Assembly: GCA_018821925.1 (NCBI GenBank)
Contig: JAHJLF010000049.1
Span: forward strand, 1 to 48,202
Source of the DNA: Candidatus Edwardsbacteria bacterium
GTDB taxonomy: Bacteria > Edwardsbacteria > AC1 > EtOH8
Length of the DNA stretch: 48,202 nt
Direction: 5' to 3'
Shown here: positions 38,708 to 47,919 of the stretch, piece after piece
Position numbering within the stretch: position 1 is the first letter of the stretch
How the letters are laid out: each line of letters starts with the position of its first letter
Position numbers and translations under genes: made by a program
Notes under the pieces: generated by a model
Seen by the model: the letters and a program-made list of their open reading frames with translations, nothing else
Databases searched by the model: none
Told to the model about the DNA's origin: nothing

Positions 38708-39694
38708 ATGAAAATAAGTCCTAAAATATTCCTGCTGTCATCTCTCTTGATGTATACGCTTATCATCACAGCCCATGGGAGGAAAACTATGGAGAATATC
38801 GTTTTTGCCACCTTTGCCCAGGATGAATCCGAACTGGAACAGGCTCTGGTGCTGGCCAGGAGCCTGCGCACTTTTGGCGGAGATATGAAAGAGGCGCCAT
38901 TCTGGCTATACCTTCCGGCCGAATCACCCGAACTGGCGGGGAAGATCGGCGATAGGTCAGCGCCGCTGAATATCAAGGTGCGGACATCCGCCACTCCCGA
39001 AGCGGCCATGGATTACTATTATTCCGGCAAGACCTTCGCCGCCGGCAATGCCGAAGGGGCCGCCGCCGGGAATTTTAAGGTACTGGCCTGGCTGGATGCC
39101 GATAATGTCATCGTCCGGGAGCCGAAGGATTTTCTTATAAAAGACGGGGTTTGCTTCGGCTGGCGGCCGGTGATGCTCAAACTGATCGGTTCGGCCTATA
39201 ATCAGCCGCCCGACGAATTCTGGTCACGATTGTACGCTAAACTCTCCGTAAAGCCGGAAGCGATCTTTCCCGTAACCACGCCGGTGGATAACGAGCAGAT
39301 AAGGGCATATTTCAATGCCGGGATACTGATAGTCCGGCCCGATCGGGGGATCCTGCGAAAATGGCCGGTATTCTATGAAAAGCTATATTCCGATCCATTC
39401 TATCAGGATGAAAGCAAAAAGGATATTAAAAAAAACATCTTCCTGCACCAGACGGCCCTGGCTGGGGCGGTGCTGAATATGCTCAACCGGGATGAGATGG
39501 TCTGTTTCGACGACAGGCACAATTATCCCTTCTTCTTTTTTGAGAAATACCCAGCCCACAAACAACTGAAATCGCTGGATGATGCCGTTACCATCCGACA
39601 TGATGGAGTGATGTATCGAGATAAGGGCTGGAGGGATAAGATGGCGGATACCTCAAAGATCGCCCAGTGGGTAAAAAGTCAATTCTCTCAATAA
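38708..39694 (+). CDS. Glycosyltransferase-like protein (GT-A type DxD), two possible starts
   Basis: The product is 328 residues. The core resembles a nucleotide-sugar-dependent GT-A fold: VFATFAQDESELEQALVLA, the DxD-like D130-x-D132 in AWLDADNVIV, a later YFNAGILIVRP segment and an acidic C-terminal part (FDDRHNYPFFFF). From the first ATG the protein starts with a signal-peptide-like stretch (KIFLLSSLLMYTLIITA). An in-frame ATG at 38789 has a strong GGGAGG 6 bases upstream and would give a cytoplasmic 301-residue enzyme starting MENIVFATF. Both starts are plausible. Donor and acceptor are unknown. The family assignment rests on the DxD and fold pattern only. Confidence 0.65.
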   Translation: MKISPKIFLLSSLLMYTLIITAHGRKTMENIVFATFAQDESELEQALVLARSLRTFGGDMKEAPFWLYLPAESPELAGKIGDRSAPLNIKVRTSATPEAAMDYYYSGKTFAAGNAEGAAAGNFKVLAWLDADNVIVREPKDFLIKDGVCFGWRPVMLKLIGSAYNQPPDEFWSRLYAKLSVKPEAIFPVTTPVDNEQIRAYFNAGILIVRPDRGILRKWPVFYEKLYSDPFYQDESKKDIKKNIFLHQTALAGAVLNMLNRDEMVCFDDRHNYPFFFFEKYPAHKQLKSLDDAVTIRHDGVMYRDKGWRDKMADTSKIAQWVKSQFSQ

Positions 39695-39757: not shown

Positions 39758-39806
39758 TGGTGCGCCATAAAGGACTCGAACCTTTGACCCGCTGATTAAG
39801 AGTCAA
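39758..39806 (-). pseudogene. 3' fragment of tRNA-Lys(CTT): island attachment site
   Basis: On the minus strand the sequence runs from inside the anticodon stem (TTGACTCTTAATCAGC, anticodon CTT) through a perfect T arm (AAAGG-TTCGAGT-CCTTT) to acceptor ATGGCGC, discriminator A and CCA. The D arm and the 5' acceptor strand (expected GCGCCAT) are absent. A tRNA 3' half at the point where base composition changes is the standard scar of site-specific integration. The missing 5' side faces the AT-rich region to the right. Confidence 0.8.
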
Positions 39807-40325: not shown

Positions 40326-40354
40326 TTGACACATAATTAAATATATAATAAAAT
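40326..40354 (+). promoter_or_regulatory. Promoter of the ATPase-STAS-PIN unit
   Basis: TTGACA (40326-40331), 17 bases, TAAAAT (40349-40354). The expected start point (about 40361) is only 9-18 bases before the GTG/ATG start codons, in keeping with the lack of a Shine-Dalgarno. Confidence 0.7.
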
Positions 40355-40369
40355 CTTTAATTCATAATT

Positions 40370-41254
40370 GTGGACAAGATGATTTATAACTTCAATAGAA
40401 GAAGCATTAAGAGCGATTATTCGGGATATGAAGAATTAATTAATTTTTTTACAATAACCAGTTCTTTGCAGGCTCAAGATATTCATATTGACTTCAGTAA
40501 TATATTTTTTAATGCTAATCTATGTGCAGTATTAGGAGCAATGTTTGAGGAACTGCAAAAGCGAACGAATAGAATATTTATTCAAAATGTTGATCGAAGA
40601 TTAATAACATTACTTAAGCGGAATAAATTTCTCACTTATTTCGGTAGCCGCGAATTGCCTGATTATTATAAAACAGTTATAAAATACAGCAAGTTCGGTA
40701 TTCATGAATTAAAAATATTTAATGAATACTTGCAAAAAGACTTACTTTCAGCTCAACATATACCACAAATGTCGGAACGACTAACTAAGAAAATTAATGA
40801 AAGTTTACTTGAACTATTTGATAATGCTGTAGCGCATGGTGAATGCGTTAATATTTTTAGCTGCGGTCAATATTATCCCATTCATAAAGCTTTAGATTTT
40901 ACGGTTGTTGATATTGGAACAACTATACAAGAAAATGTGAATAATTATCTGAGAGAAAATTGTTCAGCAACTGAGGCGATTGACTGGGCAGTAAAAGATG
41001 GCAATACTACAAAAATTGGTTCTATTCCGGGTGGCTTGGGGTTATATTTAATACGGGAATTTTTAAAAATCAATAAGGGGAAAATACAAATAATCTCATC
41101 AGATGGTTTTTGGGAAGAAACTAATGGTAAGGTAATAGTGAAAAAATACAGCAATGCTTTCCCAGGAACGATAGTCAACATTGAATTTAATATTGATGAA
41201 AAGTATTATTGTTTTAAATCAGAAATTAATGACATTGAAAACAATTCAACTTAA
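40370..41254 (+). CDS. GHKL ATPase with STAS-like N-terminal region
   Basis: The product is 294 residues from GTG 40370, or 291 from ATG 40379; neither has a ribosome site. The N-terminal half (DIHIDFSNIFFNANLCAVLG ... NVDRRLITLLKRNKFL) has the strand-helix pattern of a STAS-like domain and resembles the next gene's IIDFANIKLLTSIFLNAAIG. The C-terminal half is a histidine-kinase-like ATPase: N box ESLLELFDNAVAHGE, G1 VVDIGTTI and G2 GGLGLYLIREF. There is no HisKA phospho-acceptor domain, so it is not a classical sensor kinase; it is closer to the anti-sigma-kinase type (SpoIIAB/RsbW fold). It is the first gene of a three-gene AT-rich unit with a STAS-like protein and a PIN nuclease. Confidence 0.8.
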   Translation: MDKMIYNFNRRSIKSDYSGYEELINFFTITSSLQAQDIHIDFSNIFFNANLCAVLGAMFEELQKRTNRIFIQNVDRRLITLLKRNKFLTYFGSRELPDYYKTVIKYSKFGIHELKIFNEYLQKDLLSAQHIPQMSERLTKKINESLLELFDNAVAHGECVNIFSCGQYYPIHKALDFTVVDIGTTIQENVNNYLRENCSATEAIDWAVKDGNTTKIGSIPGGLGLYLIREFLKINKGKIQIISSDGFWEETNGKVIVKKYSNAFPGTIVNIEFNIDEKYYCFKSEINDIENNST

Positions 41255-41265
41255 GGATGAAAACA

Positions 41266-41631
41266 ATGTCCGATAAAGAGGAAATACAAATAATAATTTT
41301 TCAAGAAGCTGGTTGCGACGCTGCTGTTTCATACGAGGATGGTAATAATGTTTTTCTTCGTATTGAGCAGGCTTTCACAAACGCTCAAAGTGTTATTATT
41401 GACTTTGCAAATATTAAACTCTTAACTTCAATATTTTTAAATGCCGCAATAGGACAATTGTTTGGTAAATACGATGAGATATATATTCAAACGCATTTAA
41501 AAATAATTAATATATCGGAAGAAGATAATATAACATTTATGAAAGTTATTGAAAGAGCCAAACAATATTTTAATAATAAAAAAAATGATGGGATTGATAG
41601 AAACATCGATAAGGTTATGAATGATGAATAA
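41266..41631 (+). CDS. Small STAS-like protein (DUF4325-like)
   Basis: The product is 121 residues from ATG 41266, which has AAGGA 8 bases upstream; an ATG at 41257 overlaps that site. Core SVIIDFANIKLLTSIFLNAA is the STAS-like strand-turn-helix in which anti-anti-sigma factors carry the phosphorylatable Ser/Thr; several Ser/Thr are available here (L-T-S). The C-terminal 25 residues are Lys/Asn-rich. Its gene overlaps the PIN gene by 11 bases and follows the ATPase gene by 11 bases. A switch partner of the ATPase is the natural reading (inference from SpoIIAA/SpoIIAB-type modules). Confidence 0.7.
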   Translation: MSDKEEIQIIIFQEAGCDAAVSYEDGNNVFLRIEQAFTNAQSVIIDFANIKLLTSIFLNAAIGQLFGKYDEIYIQTHLKIINISEEDNITFMKVIERAKQYFNNKKNDGIDRNIDKVMNDE

Positions 41632-42190
41632 TTGTCATGATATTCGCAGATATAGCCCCAAGAATGATGACAGATTTATTTTAGATACAAATATCTGGGC
41701 TTATCTGTATTGCAATGTGCCTGCAAAGAAATATTTTATACGAGAGTATAGTGGATTTTTTAAGAAAATCATAAATTCTGGTGCATCAATATTTATTTCG
41801 TCGTTAATATTGTCAGAGTTTATTAAAATATACCATCAAATCGAGTTTGAGTATTTAAAATTAAAGGATCCAATGAAATATGTAAACTATAAATCTGACT
41901 ATCGTAATACTCATGATTATTGTGTAGCAATGAAAGGCGTGAAGAATGTTTTGACCAACAATATAATGAAATGTGCAAAACCTATTGATGATAAATTCAA
42001 ATCGATTACTATAGAGCAGTTAATAGATGATGTCGAGAATTGTGATTTTAATGACAAATATCATGCGATTTTAGCAAAAATTGAAAATTTATCACTTGTT
42101 ACTAATGATGGCGATTATCAAAGTAAATCAATTAATAATATAAATATACCGATATATACATGCAACGATAAACTACTAAAGCCGAAATAA
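41621..42190 (+). CDS. PIN-domain nuclease-like protein
   Basis: The product is 189 residues. PIN-type acidic residues are in place: D22 (FILDTNIWAYLY), E66 (LILSEFIK), D142/D145 (CDFNDKYHAI) and D163/D165 (VTNDGD). It is longer than VapC toxins (about 130) because of an insert between E66 and D142. PIN proteins cut RNA, often tRNA or mRNA, in toxin-antitoxin and defence systems. AAGG lies 6 bases before the ATG, and the start lies inside the end of the STAS-like gene, so translation is coupled. No VapB-like antitoxin is next to it; the two upstream genes would have to hold it in check. Confidence 0.8.
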   Translation: MMNNCHDIRRYSPKNDDRFILDTNIWAYLYCNVPAKKYFIREYSGFFKKIINSGASIFISSLILSEFIKIYHQIEFEYLKLKDPMKYVNYKSDYRNTHDYCVAMKGVKNVLTNNIMKCAKPIDDKFKSITIEQLIDDVENCDFNDKYHAILAKIENLSLVTNDGDYQSKSINNINIPIYTCNDKLLKPK

Positions 42191-44367: not shown

Positions 44368-44748
44368 ATGGATAAAGAAATCAAATATATATACCTAGCA
44401 CATCCATTTACTGACAATTATGAATATAATATTAAAAGAGTGACTGCTATAGCAAATGCTATTGTAAAACATTCGATAGATAATCCAGATTGTTTTTTTG
44501 CTCCTATAGTTCCACATTTAATTTTATCGGTGTTTAATGAGGAGAAGGACAATTCCGTAAGATCATACACAGAAGAAATAAGTAAAAATTTAGTACTTTT
44601 CTGTGACGAATTATGGCTTGTTTCAGATATCATCTCAAAGGGTATGCAGTTAGAAATACAATCAGCTCAGGAAAACACCATACCTATAAGAAAATGGTCA
44701 GAAATTAAATTAATAGTACCTATACTATGTCAATTTGATAATATTTAA
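44368..44748 (+). CDS. Nucleoside 2-deoxyribosyltransferase-like protein (DUF4406-like)
   Basis: The product is 126 residues. The pattern IYLAHPF, ANAIVKHS, FFAPIVPHLIL, a short polar stretch, then CDELWLVSDIISKGMQLEIQ and a final IPI strand is that of the nucleoside 2-deoxyribosyltransferase / DUF4406 fold. In that fold an acidic residue attacks the deoxyribose of a nucleoside or nucleotide (compare DNPH1-type hydrolases). The Glu in GMQLEIQ is the likely nucleophile. It is the first gene of a tight three-gene unit, 24 bases before the dGTPase-like gene. Confidence 0.75.
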   Translation: MDKEIKYIYLAHPFTDNYEYNIKRVTAIANAIVKHSIDNPDCFFAPIVPHLILSVFNEEKDNSVRSYTEEISKNLVLFCDELWLVSDIISKGMQLEIQSAQENTIPIRKWSEIKLIVPILCQFDNI

Positions 44749-44772
44749 CTTGTTATTATTTTAAGGAATAAA

Positions 44773-46125
44773 ATGTCTTATCTTGAGATAGAAAAAATTA
44801 AAGAAAAAAATATTGTTCCATGGGCCGCAACGTGCGAGAAATATAATAATGATCCTGATGAAAGAAGAAGTGCATTTAAACATGATGAGGATGAGTTTAT
44901 TTATTCATCTGCGTTACGTAGACTTGCGGATAAAACCCAAATAGTGGTTAAGCCAGAATTTGTTGAGCAATACCGATCTAGATTAACGCATACTTTAGAG
45001 GTACAGCAAATAGCAGAAAGTATAGGTTCACATCTTTCCTTAAATAATGAACTTATTAATGCTATTGCGTGTGGTCATGATTTGGGCCATTGCCCATATG
45101 GCCATGCAGGAGAAAGAGCCATACAAGGAATATTTAAAGCGAATATACTACCGTTATGTGATCTTGGGAAACTTAAAATTAATTTAACAGAAGCATTATA
45201 TTTTTACAATATAAAGGTAAAAATAAAGCGTGAAATACAACCATATTATTTATTTCACCATGCTGTTAATTCGGTTAGAATAATCGAAAGGAAGATGAAA
45301 GGTATAGGATTTATAACAAAAAGGGGAATTATTACTCATAGTTGGAGTCCATGGCAGAATCAAAGCAAAATAAAATATGGTATCCCAGATACACTTGAGG
45401 CACAAGCTGTTGCTATAGCTGATCAGATTGCTGGTATAAATCATGATACCGAGGATATTTTAAATTGTAAGGAATCAGATTATGATATTGATAAAATAAA
45501 AAAAGCCGGATCAAAACATATAGATAATAAGGGTTATTTGAAATATTCTGATGCGTATGCGATATTCAACGAATGGTTTTTAACAACGGAATCTACTCAT
45601 ATAAATGGATGGGGGCGTAAAAAAAGGTTAAGAAATATAATCAATAGTGTTATTGATTACTCTTCGGATGAGATTTACAAATATTATATTGCAAAGGAAC
45701 CAAGAAGATATGGAGAAGAACCTGTACTTCAATTAGATAAAAACATTAAATCTTTCTTATCTGGATATGAGTCTTTTATCCGTAGCGAAATAATACAAGT
45801 AAAGAATTGTTTTAAACAAAGAGACGCACAGGCAGAAGCTGAAATAGGAACGGCATTTAATTTTTTTAAAATAAGAGATGAAAATGATCAAACAAATATT
45901 AAGGAAAAGGAGAAAGAGTGCATAAATGCATTTAAATTATCGATAAGCGATGATAGATATAACGAGGATAAAATATTTATTGCTTTTATAAATAGTTTAA
46001 AAAAACATAATGGAGATAAATTACGACATTACCTTGAGATAATTGATTTTGTGTGTGGTATGACAGACACATATTTGCATAAAATCATAGGTATTGCCAA
46101 TGAGCAGTTCAATAACAGTAAATAA
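44773..46125 (+). CDS. HD-domain dNTP triphosphohydrolase (dGTPase-like)
   Basis: The product is 450 residues, AAGGA 5 bases before the ATG. The dGTPase family features are present: FIYSSALRRLADKTQI, metal ligand H73 in SRLTHTLEV, H102-D103 in CGHDLGHCPYGHAGE, a later ligand Asp in EAQAVAIADQIAGINHD, and the family's aromatic FHHAVNSVRI. Such enzymes hydrolyse dGTP (or other dNTPs) to the nucleoside and triphosphate. Homologues limit phage and viral replication by draining dNTPs. Here the gene is an AT-rich island gene between a deoxyribosyltransferase-like and an RlmN-like gene, unlike a housekeeping dgt. Confidence 0.88.
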   Translation: MSYLEIEKIKEKNIVPWAATCEKYNNDPDERRSAFKHDEDEFIYSSALRRLADKTQIVVKPEFVEQYRSRLTHTLEVQQIAESIGSHLSLNNELINAIACGHDLGHCPYGHAGERAIQGIFKANILPLCDLGKLKINLTEALYFYNIKVKIKREIQPYYLFHHAVNSVRIIERKMKGIGFITKRGIITHSWSPWQNQSKIKYGIPDTLEAQAVAIADQIAGINHDTEDILNCKESDYDIDKIKKAGSKHIDNKGYLKYSDAYAIFNEWFLTTESTHINGWGRKKRLRNIINSVIDYSSDEIYKYYIAKEPRRYGEEPVLQLDKNIKSFLSGYESFIRSEIIQVKNCFKQRDAQAEAEIGTAFNFFKIRDENDQTNIKEKEKECINAFKLSISDDRYNEDKIFIAFINSLKKHNGDKLRHYLEIIDFVCGMTDTYLHKIIGIANEQFNNSK

Positions 46126-46152
46126 TAAAAAGGTTATTATATTATAATAAAT

Positions 46153-47061
46153 ATGGGTACATTGACAAATTATAAAATATCTTCTGACGGTTCGAAGAAA
46201 TATATTTGGGAAACAGAGGATGGCTTGCATTATGAATCCGCTCTGGTTGATTTAGATTATAGAACCCCAAATAAAGTAATTTGCGTATCATCAGCTATCG
46301 GTTGTACTATAGGTTGTAAGTTTTGCAAAACAGGGCAAAAATACCATAGAAATTTAAATAATAGAGAAATCATTGAACAAATAGAAAATATTATACAACA
46401 TGATAGACTAAAAAGTGCATCATCTTCTAAAATGTTCGAAATTAGTTTTATGGCGATGGGTGAACCCCTTTTGAATTACAATAATCTAATAAAAACATTC
46501 GATTGGCTTGGAAAAGAGTATGGTGATAATCTTGAAGTAACGGTATCTACTGCAGGCCTAGTAAATAAAATATATGAACTTGCTGAACTAAATTATCCTT
46601 TTAGTATCGATTTGCAGATATCATTACATTCTACTGATCAGTATTTGAGAAATAAGTTAATGCCAGGTTTAAGAGACAATATTAAAGATATTATTAATGC
46701 ATCTGAATATTATGCTAGGAAGGTTAAAAGAAAGGTCTGCATTAATTACTTATTGCTTAATAATGTTAATGATAGTGAGAAAGAGCTAAGGGCCTTACAT
46801 AAATTATTGAACCCAAAATATCATTATGTAAAATTATCAGAAATAAATTCTAATAGCTCACACTTTAGTAAGCCTCCCGATAGCAAATATAAAATATTTT
46901 ATAATTTCCTTTTAAGTAAAAATATTGAGACAAAATTGTTTAAAAGCAAAGGTGTTGACATCGGAGCTGGATGTGGGCAATTATCTGCAGCAGAGGATAT
47001 AAGGTTAACATCTTTAAATTATAATAGAACAAATTCGAAGAAAATCAATACAGTATTTTAA
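46153..47061 (+). CDS. Short RlmN/Cfr-family radical SAM methyltransferase
   Basis: The product is 302 residues. The radical SAM cluster motif is C51-x3-C55-x2-C58 (GCTIGCKFC). The RlmN/Cfr-specific pieces are also present: C44 in ICVSSAIGC, the GMGEP-like AMGEPLLN, LQISLHS and the methyl-carrying C274 in GAGCGQL. Both mechanistic cysteines of the family are therefore kept and the enzyme should methylate an adenine in RNA (C2 or C8). It lacks the N-terminal accessory domain (about 80-90 residues) that RlmN uses to bind 23S rRNA/tRNA, so its target may differ. It begins 27 bases after the dGTPase-like gene with no close ribosome site. Confidence 0.85.
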   Translation: MGTLTNYKISSDGSKKYIWETEDGLHYESALVDLDYRTPNKVICVSSAIGCTIGCKFCKTGQKYHRNLNNREIIEQIENIIQHDRLKSASSSKMFEISFMAMGEPLLNYNNLIKTFDWLGKEYGDNLEVTVSTAGLVNKIYELAELNYPFSIDLQISLHSTDQYLRNKLMPGLRDNIKDIINASEYYARKVKRKVCINYLLLNNVNDSEKELRALHKLLNPKYHYVKLSEINSNSSHFSKPPDSKYKIFYNFLLSKNIETKLFKSKGVDIGAGCGQLSAAEDIRLTSLNYNRTNSKKINTVF

Positions 47062-47079
47062 TTATATGAGTATTGATTT

Positions 47080-47919
47080 ATGAGAAAAATTCTCTTCTAT
47101 ATTATTTCCCTCCTCTCTTTTTCCCTTCTAAACGCCCAACAAGAAGCAACAACATCTGATGGAAAGAAAGTAATCCTCTTTGAGGATGGAACCTGGCAAT
47201 ATGCTGTTTACATTACTGAAATAAAACCCGTACATATTGATTTCCTTGAAATCCCGGAAAATCCCTCTTCTTGCCAAATGGTGGTTCATGCAGGGTATAC
47301 TCTTTCATATAATGAGGAGCATGAGCAGGCCAATTGGGTGGCTTATGAATTGACTGAGAAAGAGACAGAAGGGAAGCATAAGAGGACGAATAAATTCATT
47401 GTGGATCCGGATATCTCAACTGGATCAGCAACCAGCAAAGATTATAAGAAATCAGGCTATGATCAGGGACATTTAGTGCCGGCCGCGGATATGGCCTGGT
47501 CCCAAACTGCAATGACGGAATCGTTTTATTACAGCAACATGAGTCCCCAGGAACCAAGCTTCAATCGCGGTATTTGGAAGAAGCTGGAAGAACAGGTCAG
47601 GGGGTGGGCAAGAGAGAATAATGCAATATATGTCATTACAGGGCCTGTATTGACTGATGGATTGCCCACCATAGGCCCAAATAAGGTCTCTGTGCCCAAG
47701 TATTATTACAAAGTGATATTGGACTATACTCTCCCCGAAATAAAGGCTATTGGCTTTATAATGCCCAACGCGGGGTCATCAGAGCCATTACAGAGCTACA
47801 CAGTGACTGTGGACAGTGTTGAAAAGTTTACTGGGATAGACTTCTTTTATCGGCTTCCGGATGACCAGGAGAAGATAATAGAAAGTATTCTTGATGTCGG
47901 GGCCTGGTTTAAAGAATAG
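47080..47919 (+). CDS. Exported NucA-type DNA/RNA non-specific endonuclease
   Basis: The product is 279 residues with a signal peptide (about 1-19). A short N-terminal module (DGKKVILFEDGTWQYA) precedes the beta-beta-alpha-metal nuclease: catalytic motif D128-Q-G-H131 (YDQGHLVPAADM, where DRGH is usual), metal-ligand Asn in FNRGIWKKLE (N162) and a typical IYVITGPVL strand. The family cuts DNA and RNA without sequence preference, mostly outside the cell or in the periplasm. Composition is between that of the island and the chromosome. The Gln for Arg in DRGH is a known natural variation. Confidence 0.9.
   Translation: MRKILFYIISLLSFSLLNAQQEATTSDGKKVILFEDGTWQYAVYITEIKPVHIDFLEIPENPSSCQMVVHAGYTLSYNEEHEQANWVAYELTEKETEGKHKRTNKFIVDPDISTGSATSKDYKKSGYDQGHLVPAADMAWSQTAMTESFYYSNMSPQEPSFNRGIWKKLEEQVRGWARENNAIYVITGPVLTDGLPTIGPNKVSVPKYYYKVILDYTLPEIKAIGFIMPNAGSSEPLQSYTVTVDSVEKFTGIDFFYRLPDDQEKIIESILDVGAWFKE

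What the first reader, a model, noticed from the sequence alone, without database searches (positions are those of the whole stretch)
40326..42190. Candidate new defence or toxin module: GHKL ATPase + STAS-like protein + PIN nuclease
Three overlapping or abutting AT-rich genes with one promoter encode a SpoIIAB/RsbW-type ATPase fold with its own STAS-like N-terminus, a free STAS-like protein and a PIN-type RNase with all acidic residues. Established: GHKL kinases and STAS proteins form partner switches that sequester a third protein. Inference: here the third protein is a nuclease rather than a sigma factor, so the module may be an abortive-infection switch releasing an RNase. The insert of about 75 residues between PIN motifs could be the docking surface.
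Basis: partly seen in the sequence, partly recalled or inferred. Interest (0 to 1): 0.85.

Follow-up and report, generated by a model that had tools for sequence, protein, structure and literature searches.

The report
VapKSC kinase-switched toxin-antitoxin operon
The three genes are a real operon and belong to VapKSC, a bacterial anti-phage toxin-antitoxin switch published in June 2026, in which a kinase marks the antitoxin so that it lets go of an RNA-cutting toxin; this copy is a new member from an unrelated lineage, not a new kind of system.

Summary
Window 40379-42190 carries a STAS+GHKL ATPase, a free STAS-like protein (DUF4325) and a PIN nuclease with all its acidic residues. The same order recurs in 25 of the 28 loci found across bacterial and archaeal genomes, and on phages, a plasmid and an E. 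coli prophage. The three proteins diverge together, and strong homologues of this PIN in 386 genomes sit behind the STAS gene wherever the contig allows a test. A 2026 EMBO J paper (PMC13373217) named it vapKSC and showed that VapS is the antitoxin of VapC, that a phosphomimetic in VapS releases VapC, and that the operon protects E. coli from a phage. Membership was tested here. Profiles of our VapS and VapC hit the solved Escherichia VapS/VapC complex 9Z7O (E 6.6e-26, 3.9e-17). The VapS phosphosite, VapC D28 and VapK F54 align with window S55, D22 and F43. Additions: three archaeal contigs, phage-borne copies, insertion inside Hma, type I R-M, BREX-like and CRISPR loci, VapK loss with VapSC kept, and an accessory island next to a tRNA-Lys fragment. 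Verdict: new member of a known kind.

The parts
40326..40354 (+). sigma-70-like promoter candidate TTGACA-17-TAAAAT
   Evidence: 11/12 matches; promoter-like sites are not enriched over shuffles, so weak
40379..41254 (+). vapK: N-terminal STAS-like domain plus SpoIIAB-type GHKL kinase, 291 aa (alternative GTG start 40370)
   Evidence: 31% identity over about 250 aa, E 4e-35, to E. coli VapK
40505..40507 (+). codon of VapK F43, aligned with the defence-essential VapK F54 / CapK W68 (predicted ssDNA-stacking residue)
   Evidence: in-frame ATG 5 codons upstream turns F49 into F54; W 18 / F 7 of 25
40811..40837 (+). GHKL N-box E145-N149-H153
   Evidence: invariant in 25 of 25
41266..41631 (+). vapS: STAS-like DUF4325 antitoxin, 121 aa (alternative ATG 41257, 124 aa)
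   Evidence: (PF14213 E 1.3e-13); profile vs 9Z7O VapS E 6.6e-26; 35% over 78 aa
41428..41430 (+). codon of VapS S55, aligned with Escherichia VapS S48, the phospho-acceptor position
   Evidence: S 21 / T 6 of 27 orthologues
41621..42190 (+). vapC: PIN-domain ribonuclease toxin, 189 aa; D22, E66, D142, D145, D163, D165; start overlaps the end of vapS by 11 nt
   Evidence: (profile vs 9Z7O VapC E 3.9e-17)

Best explanation
The trio is a VapKSC operon. At rest VapS (41266-41631) is bound to the PIN ribonuclease VapC (41621-42190) and blocks it. When phage infection or DNA damage produces single-stranded DNA, the STAS-GHKL kinase VapK (40379-41254) binds it in the groove between its two domains (aromatic F43), becomes active and phosphorylates VapS at S55. 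Phospho-VapS lets go of VapC, which then cuts cellular RNA (probably tRNA or rRNA) and stops growth, so that the phage cannot multiply. The overlap of vapS and vapC couples their translation, which should keep antitoxin in step with toxin. Shown for the Escherichia relative: VapS-VapC complex, VapC toxicity, neutralisation by VapS, loss of binding with S48E, phage protection, and loss of protection with F54A, S48A or D28A. Inferred for this copy: everything functional. Not shown anywhere: direct ssDNA activation of VapK, and the RNA target.
For: All three proteins match the published system: VapS and VapC profiles hit PDB 9Z7O with no other convincing hit, window VapK matches E. coli VapK, and the three residues shown to be needed for protection are conserved. 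Same gene order in 25 of 28 genome loci. The three distance matrices correlate (Mantel r 0.73-0.85, 0 of 2000 permutations as high). In 386 genomes the seven strong PIN hits that can be tested follow the STAS gene. VapK is broken while VapS and VapC stay open in two genomes (G043, G326), as expected if VapS is the antitoxin and VapK the trigger. GHKL model closest to SpoIIAB, PIN model closest to VapC toxins (Z 12.5). At least 10 of 26 genome loci have a strong known immune gene beside the trio, close to the published 36%. Mechanism: PMC13373217.
Against: No experiment on this copy. The sequences are remote from the tested one (VapC 25%, VapS 35%, VapK 31% identity). VapK of the published system was insoluble, so ssDNA activation rests on CapK, on an AlphaFold 3 model and on F54A. 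The broken vapK copies come from metagenome assemblies and could be sequencing errors. The tethered ATPase-STAS model (pTM 0.75) used a read-through chain and its interface was not inspected.
Confidence: 0.92

Rival explanations
1. Classical SpoIIAB/RsbW partner switch: the GHKL protein itself sequesters the PIN nuclease, and unphosphorylated STAS protein pulls the kinase off to free it.
For: The GHKL domain is closest to SpoIIAB, which holds sigma-F in this way.
Against: The solved complex is VapS-VapC and VapS alone neutralises VapC (PMC13373217). vapK is broken in two genomes that keep open vapS and vapC. The vapS-vapC overlap is the conserved one (mostly -11 nt), whereas vapK-vapS spacing varies.
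Confidence: 0.04
2. A CapKS-type transcriptional switch: the STAS protein is a repressor and the PIN gene is merely its regulated neighbour.
For: CapK and CapS are related by domain (PMC13373217).
Against: The window STAS protein is only about 121 aa and its orthologues show no winged-helix domain after the STAS fold. Its nearest solved relative is VapS.
Confidence: 0.02
3. A stress-response or element-stabilising toxin-antitoxin operon in which phage defence is only a by-product of a DNA-damage signal.
For: Occurs on prophages, a plasmid and an island beside a tRNA fragment. The published discussion itself calls the line between stress response and immunity fuzzy.
Against: Embedded in Hma, R-M, BREX-like and CRISPR loci; protection against a phage shown for the relative. 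Not exclusive with the main explanation.
Confidence: 0.15

Closest known systems
VapKSC (Escherichia sp. E4736; EMBO J 2026, PMC13373217; PDB 9Z7O)
   Same: Gene order, domain make-up of all three proteins, phosphosite, aromatic ssDNA-site residue, VapC active site, long spacing between PIN motifs, neighbourhood with immune genes.
   Different: 25-35% identity; different host lineage; the vapS-vapC overlap is longer here (11 nt against 1 nt in E. coli JNE25-001).
CapK + CapS (same paper)
   Same: STAS-GHKL kinase plus STAS substrate with a conserved serine; ssDNA-activated.
   Different: CapK has an extra N-terminal HTH and CapS a winged-helix DNA-binding domain; the output is transcription of a neighbouring immune operon, not release of a toxin.
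SpoIIAB/SpoIIAA and RsbW/RsbV partner switches
   Same: GHKL Ser/Thr kinase fold (Z 10.9 to SpoIIAB) and STAS substrate.
   Different: There the kinase holds a sigma factor; here the STAS protein holds a nuclease. The kinase here has its own STAS-like N-terminus.
VapBC toxin-antitoxin systems
   Same: VapC-type PIN fold (Z 12.5) held by an adjacent antitoxin.
   Different: The antitoxin is a STAS protein, not a VapB DNA-binding protein, and release is by phosphorylation rather than by proteolysis (the latter from general knowledge).

Membership tests
VapKSC | Three-gene operon kinase-STAS-PIN in this order | tested here: met
   recurrence
VapKSC | VapK with STAS-like and GHKL domains, homologous to Escherichia VapK | tested here: met
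   (E 4e-35)
VapKSC | Aromatic residue at the ssDNA site (VapK F54) | tested here: met
   window F43; W/F in 25 of 25
VapKSC | VapS with absolutely conserved Ser/Thr (S48) | tested here: met
   window S55; S/T in 27 of 27
VapKSC | VapS C-terminal helical region after the STAS domain | tested here: met
   (orthologue L019: helices 376-394 and 396-412 of the read-through chain); alignment
VapKSC | VapC PIN catalytic acids (D28 and others) | tested here: met
VapKSC | VapS neutralises VapC; phosphorylation releases it; ssDNA activates VapK; phage protection | not testable with these tools
   needs bench work; shown in part for the Escherichia relative
CapKS | Winged-helix DNA-binding domain on the STAS protein and N-terminal HTH on the kinase | tested here: not met
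   STAS protein 121 aa with no such domain; kinase starts directly with the STAS-like domain
VapBC | VapB-type antitoxin next to VapC | tested here: not met
   the adjacent protein is DUF4325/STAS-like
SpoIIAB/SpoIIAA-sigma partner switch | Sigma factor as the regulated partner | tested here: not met
   third gene is a PIN nuclease; no sigma factor in the operon
Any system in PADLOC-DB 2.0.0 | Profile match for the three proteins | tested here: not met
   only a short weak hit (PDC-M43B, 18 bits) for VapK, none for VapS or VapC; the library predates VapKSC

The most novel reading that the evidence does not exclude
VapKSC is a mobile, widely shared guard cassette that slots into other defence operons (between hsdS and hsdR, inside Hma, next to BREX and CRISPR genes) and into prophages. 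There it reads out the ssDNA left when the host system cuts DNA or is overcome, much as PrrC guards a type I R-M system; its range includes archaea.
Probability: 0.3. Interest if true: 0.5.

Novelty: new member of a known kind. Interest (0 to 1): 0.3.

Why it matters
An unaided reading of raw sequence arrived at a mechanism that an independent laboratory published in 2026. The comparison adds breadth: remote bacterial lineages, probable archaea, phages and a plasmid, with the three functional residues kept. It gives a remote homologue on which the unproven steps (ssDNA activation of VapK, RNA target of VapC) could be tested, since the Escherichia VapK was insoluble.

Tried and rejected
A PIN-only scan of viral contigs and tblastn of the PIN in plasmids gave nothing, because single PIN sequences are too divergent. 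Pfam hits of VapK to baeRF families are below cut-off and are taken as chance. PADLOC PDC-M43B (18 bits over 42 residues) was rejected as noise. Paper searches for DUF4325 plus PIN and for HATPase/PIN/defence found nothing relevant; only the search on STAS domain/anti-phage found the key paper. PADLOC's original Hma paper does not mention the trio. DUF4325 pairs without PIN (L004, L005, L010, L011, L066) exist, partly in ordinary chromosomal surroundings, and orphan STAS genes occur (L069, L083); DUF4325 alone is therefore no marker of this system. I looked for direct repeats bounding the island and found none within 38.3-48.2 kb.

Full report
Check of the observation. Pfam finds DUF4325 (STAS-like) in gene 2 at 1.3e-13 and PIN in gene 3 at 1.7e-6, both over the curated cut-off. 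Gene 1 gives HATPase_c only at 0.0078. A TTGACA-17-TAAAAT site lies at 40326-40354, although promoter-like patterns as a class are not enriched in this AT-rich stretch.

It is not a local accident. tblastn found the same trio on Deinococcus gobiensis plasmid P5, Streptococcus phage Javan172, where the PIN gene is not annotated, a phage scaffold from human faeces and a viral contig. A scan of 84,980 species genomes gave 28 loci. All but three carry ATPase, STAS and PIN in the same order and strand; of the exceptions one is cut by the contig end, one is spurious and one has a split PIN gene. Hosts include Desulfuromonadales, Spirochaetia, Elusimicrobia, Nitrospira, Gemmatimonadota, Dysgonomonas, Methylomonas, Neorhizobium, Sulfurovum and three contigs assigned to archaea (Methanosarcinaceae, Methanothrix, GoM-Arc1). 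The archaeal ones are metagenome contigs, so binning errors are possible.

The three genes are inherited as one unit. Pairwise distances of the three proteins over 25 loci correlate (Mantel r 0.85, 0.84, 0.73; none of 2000 permutations as high). A profile of the PIN in 386 genomes gave eight strong hits; seven could be tested, all behind the STAS gene, and the eighth sits at a contig end. Two weak hits (about 1e-6) are other PIN proteins. The start of the PIN gene overlaps the end of the STAS gene in most loci, usually by 11 nt.

Structure. AF2 of the PIN (24 orthologues) gave pLDDT 94.4 and pTM 0.89; its best PDB matches are VapC toxins (Z 12.5, 127-128 residues, 2.2-2.3 A). For the kinase I read through the stop between ATPase and STAS gene of orthologue L019 as one chain, with ten further in-frame loci. 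The model has pLDDT 89.7 and pTM 0.75. Its GHKL part matches SpoIIAB best (Z 10.9, 135 residues, 2.8 A), above histidine kinases and topoisomerases at about 8. The read-through chain is an artificial tether and I draw no conclusion about the interface.

What it is. A literature search found PMC13373217 (EMBO J, June 2026), which describes exactly this operon and names it vapKSC. There VapC is toxic, VapS neutralises it, S48E abolishes binding, the operon gives about 100-fold protection against phage Bas42, and VapC D28A, VapS S48A or VapK F54A each remove protection. I tested membership directly. Profiles of our families hit PDB 9Z7O 'Escherichia VapS' at 6.6e-26 and 'Escherichia VapC' at 3.9e-17, with nothing else convincing. 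Window VapS and VapC match these chains pairwise (35% over 78 aa, E 2e-15; 25% over 185 aa, E 4e-14). An E. coli vapKSC was located through a viral contig and its VapK matches window VapK at E 4e-35. VapS S48 corresponds to window S55 (S or T in 27 of 27), VapC D28 to D22 (24 of 24), and VapK F54 to F43 (W or F in 25 of 25). For the last, an in-frame ATG five codons upstream of the annotated E. coli start turns F49 into F54.

How it works. By homology, VapS blocks VapC; VapK senses ssDNA, phosphorylates VapS at S55 and so releases VapC. For the Escherichia relative the toxin, antitoxin, phosphomimetic and phage steps are shown; ssDNA activation of VapK and the RNA target are not. For this copy all of it is inference from homology. 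An independent hint that VapS and not VapK restrains VapC: two genomes have a broken vapK beside open vapS and vapC (G043 frameshift, G326 internal deletion), though assembly errors cannot be excluded.

Surroundings. Known immune genes lie beside the trio in at least 10 of 26 genome loci: Hma (L020, L021, L031), type I R-M between hsdM/hsdS and hsdR (L026, L027, L032), type IIG enzymes (L024, L029), BrxC (L033) and Cas3 (L016). The published figure is 36%. In the window itself, homology with a same-genus genome stops at 39677, and at 39758-39805 lies a fragment of tRNA-Lys whose full copy is elsewhere in the genome. The trio thus sits at the start of an accessory island, probably integrated at a tRNA gene; this step is inference.

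Verdict. This is a new, remote member of VapKSC. The additions are taxonomic and contextual breadth and conservation of the three functional residues.

Noticed in passing
window 39758-39805: Fragment of a tRNA-Lys(CTT) gene on the minus strand (3' half); a 93% match lies at an intact tRNA-Lys elsewhere in the genome (G000:C93), and synteny with same-genus G001 ends at 39677. Probable attachment-site remnant of the island 39.7-48.2 kb.
   Followed up: partly
window 44368-47061: Second AT-rich operon: DUF7768 protein, divergent dGTPase-like HD protein and an RlmN-like radical SAM protein. No strong relative of the HD protein in 193 genomes (E <= 1e-60) and only a partial one on plasmids. Could be a nucleotide-depletion defence operon.
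   Followed up: partly
window 47080-47919: Secreted-looking DNA/RNA non-specific endonuclease (Endonuclease_NS, E 1.1e-57) right after that operon.
   Followed up: no
L008 1420-3192 and L034 5992-7767: Trio directly downstream of a T7 gp14-like internal virion protein gene, in a phage scaffold and in a Neorhizobium genome: carriage among virion genes of a podovirus-like element.
   Followed up: partly
L009 4030-6652 (Streptococcus phage Javan172): HTH regulator and ImmA/IrrE-type peptidase directly upstream of vapKSC, next to the integrase; the PIN gene is not annotated. An IrrE-like peptidase also precedes the trio in L003. May add transcriptional control by DNA damage, or be the phage's own lysogeny switch.
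   Followed up: partly
L021 2423-12766 and L031 1490-12675: The trio sits between HmaA and HmaB, followed by two genes that fit Septu PtuA and PtuB by size (PtuA hits in the tally): a cargo slot inside Hma.
   Followed up: partly
L092 4666-6525 (E. coli JNE25-001): vapKSC in E. coli lies between mntR and prophage tail genes, found in 2 of 5426 E. coli genomes.
   Followed up: partly
C-terminus of VapK orthologues (A9): Most VapK proteins end in a conserved (E/D)IF motif right before the stop, possibly a short docking tail; the window copy ends differently.
   Followed up: no
L062, L063, L065, L071, L074 and other DUF4325 hits: About 350-residue proteins join a GHKL-like part to a C-terminal DUF4325 in one chain, natural fusions of kinase and STAS partner without a PIN gene.
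   Followed up: partly
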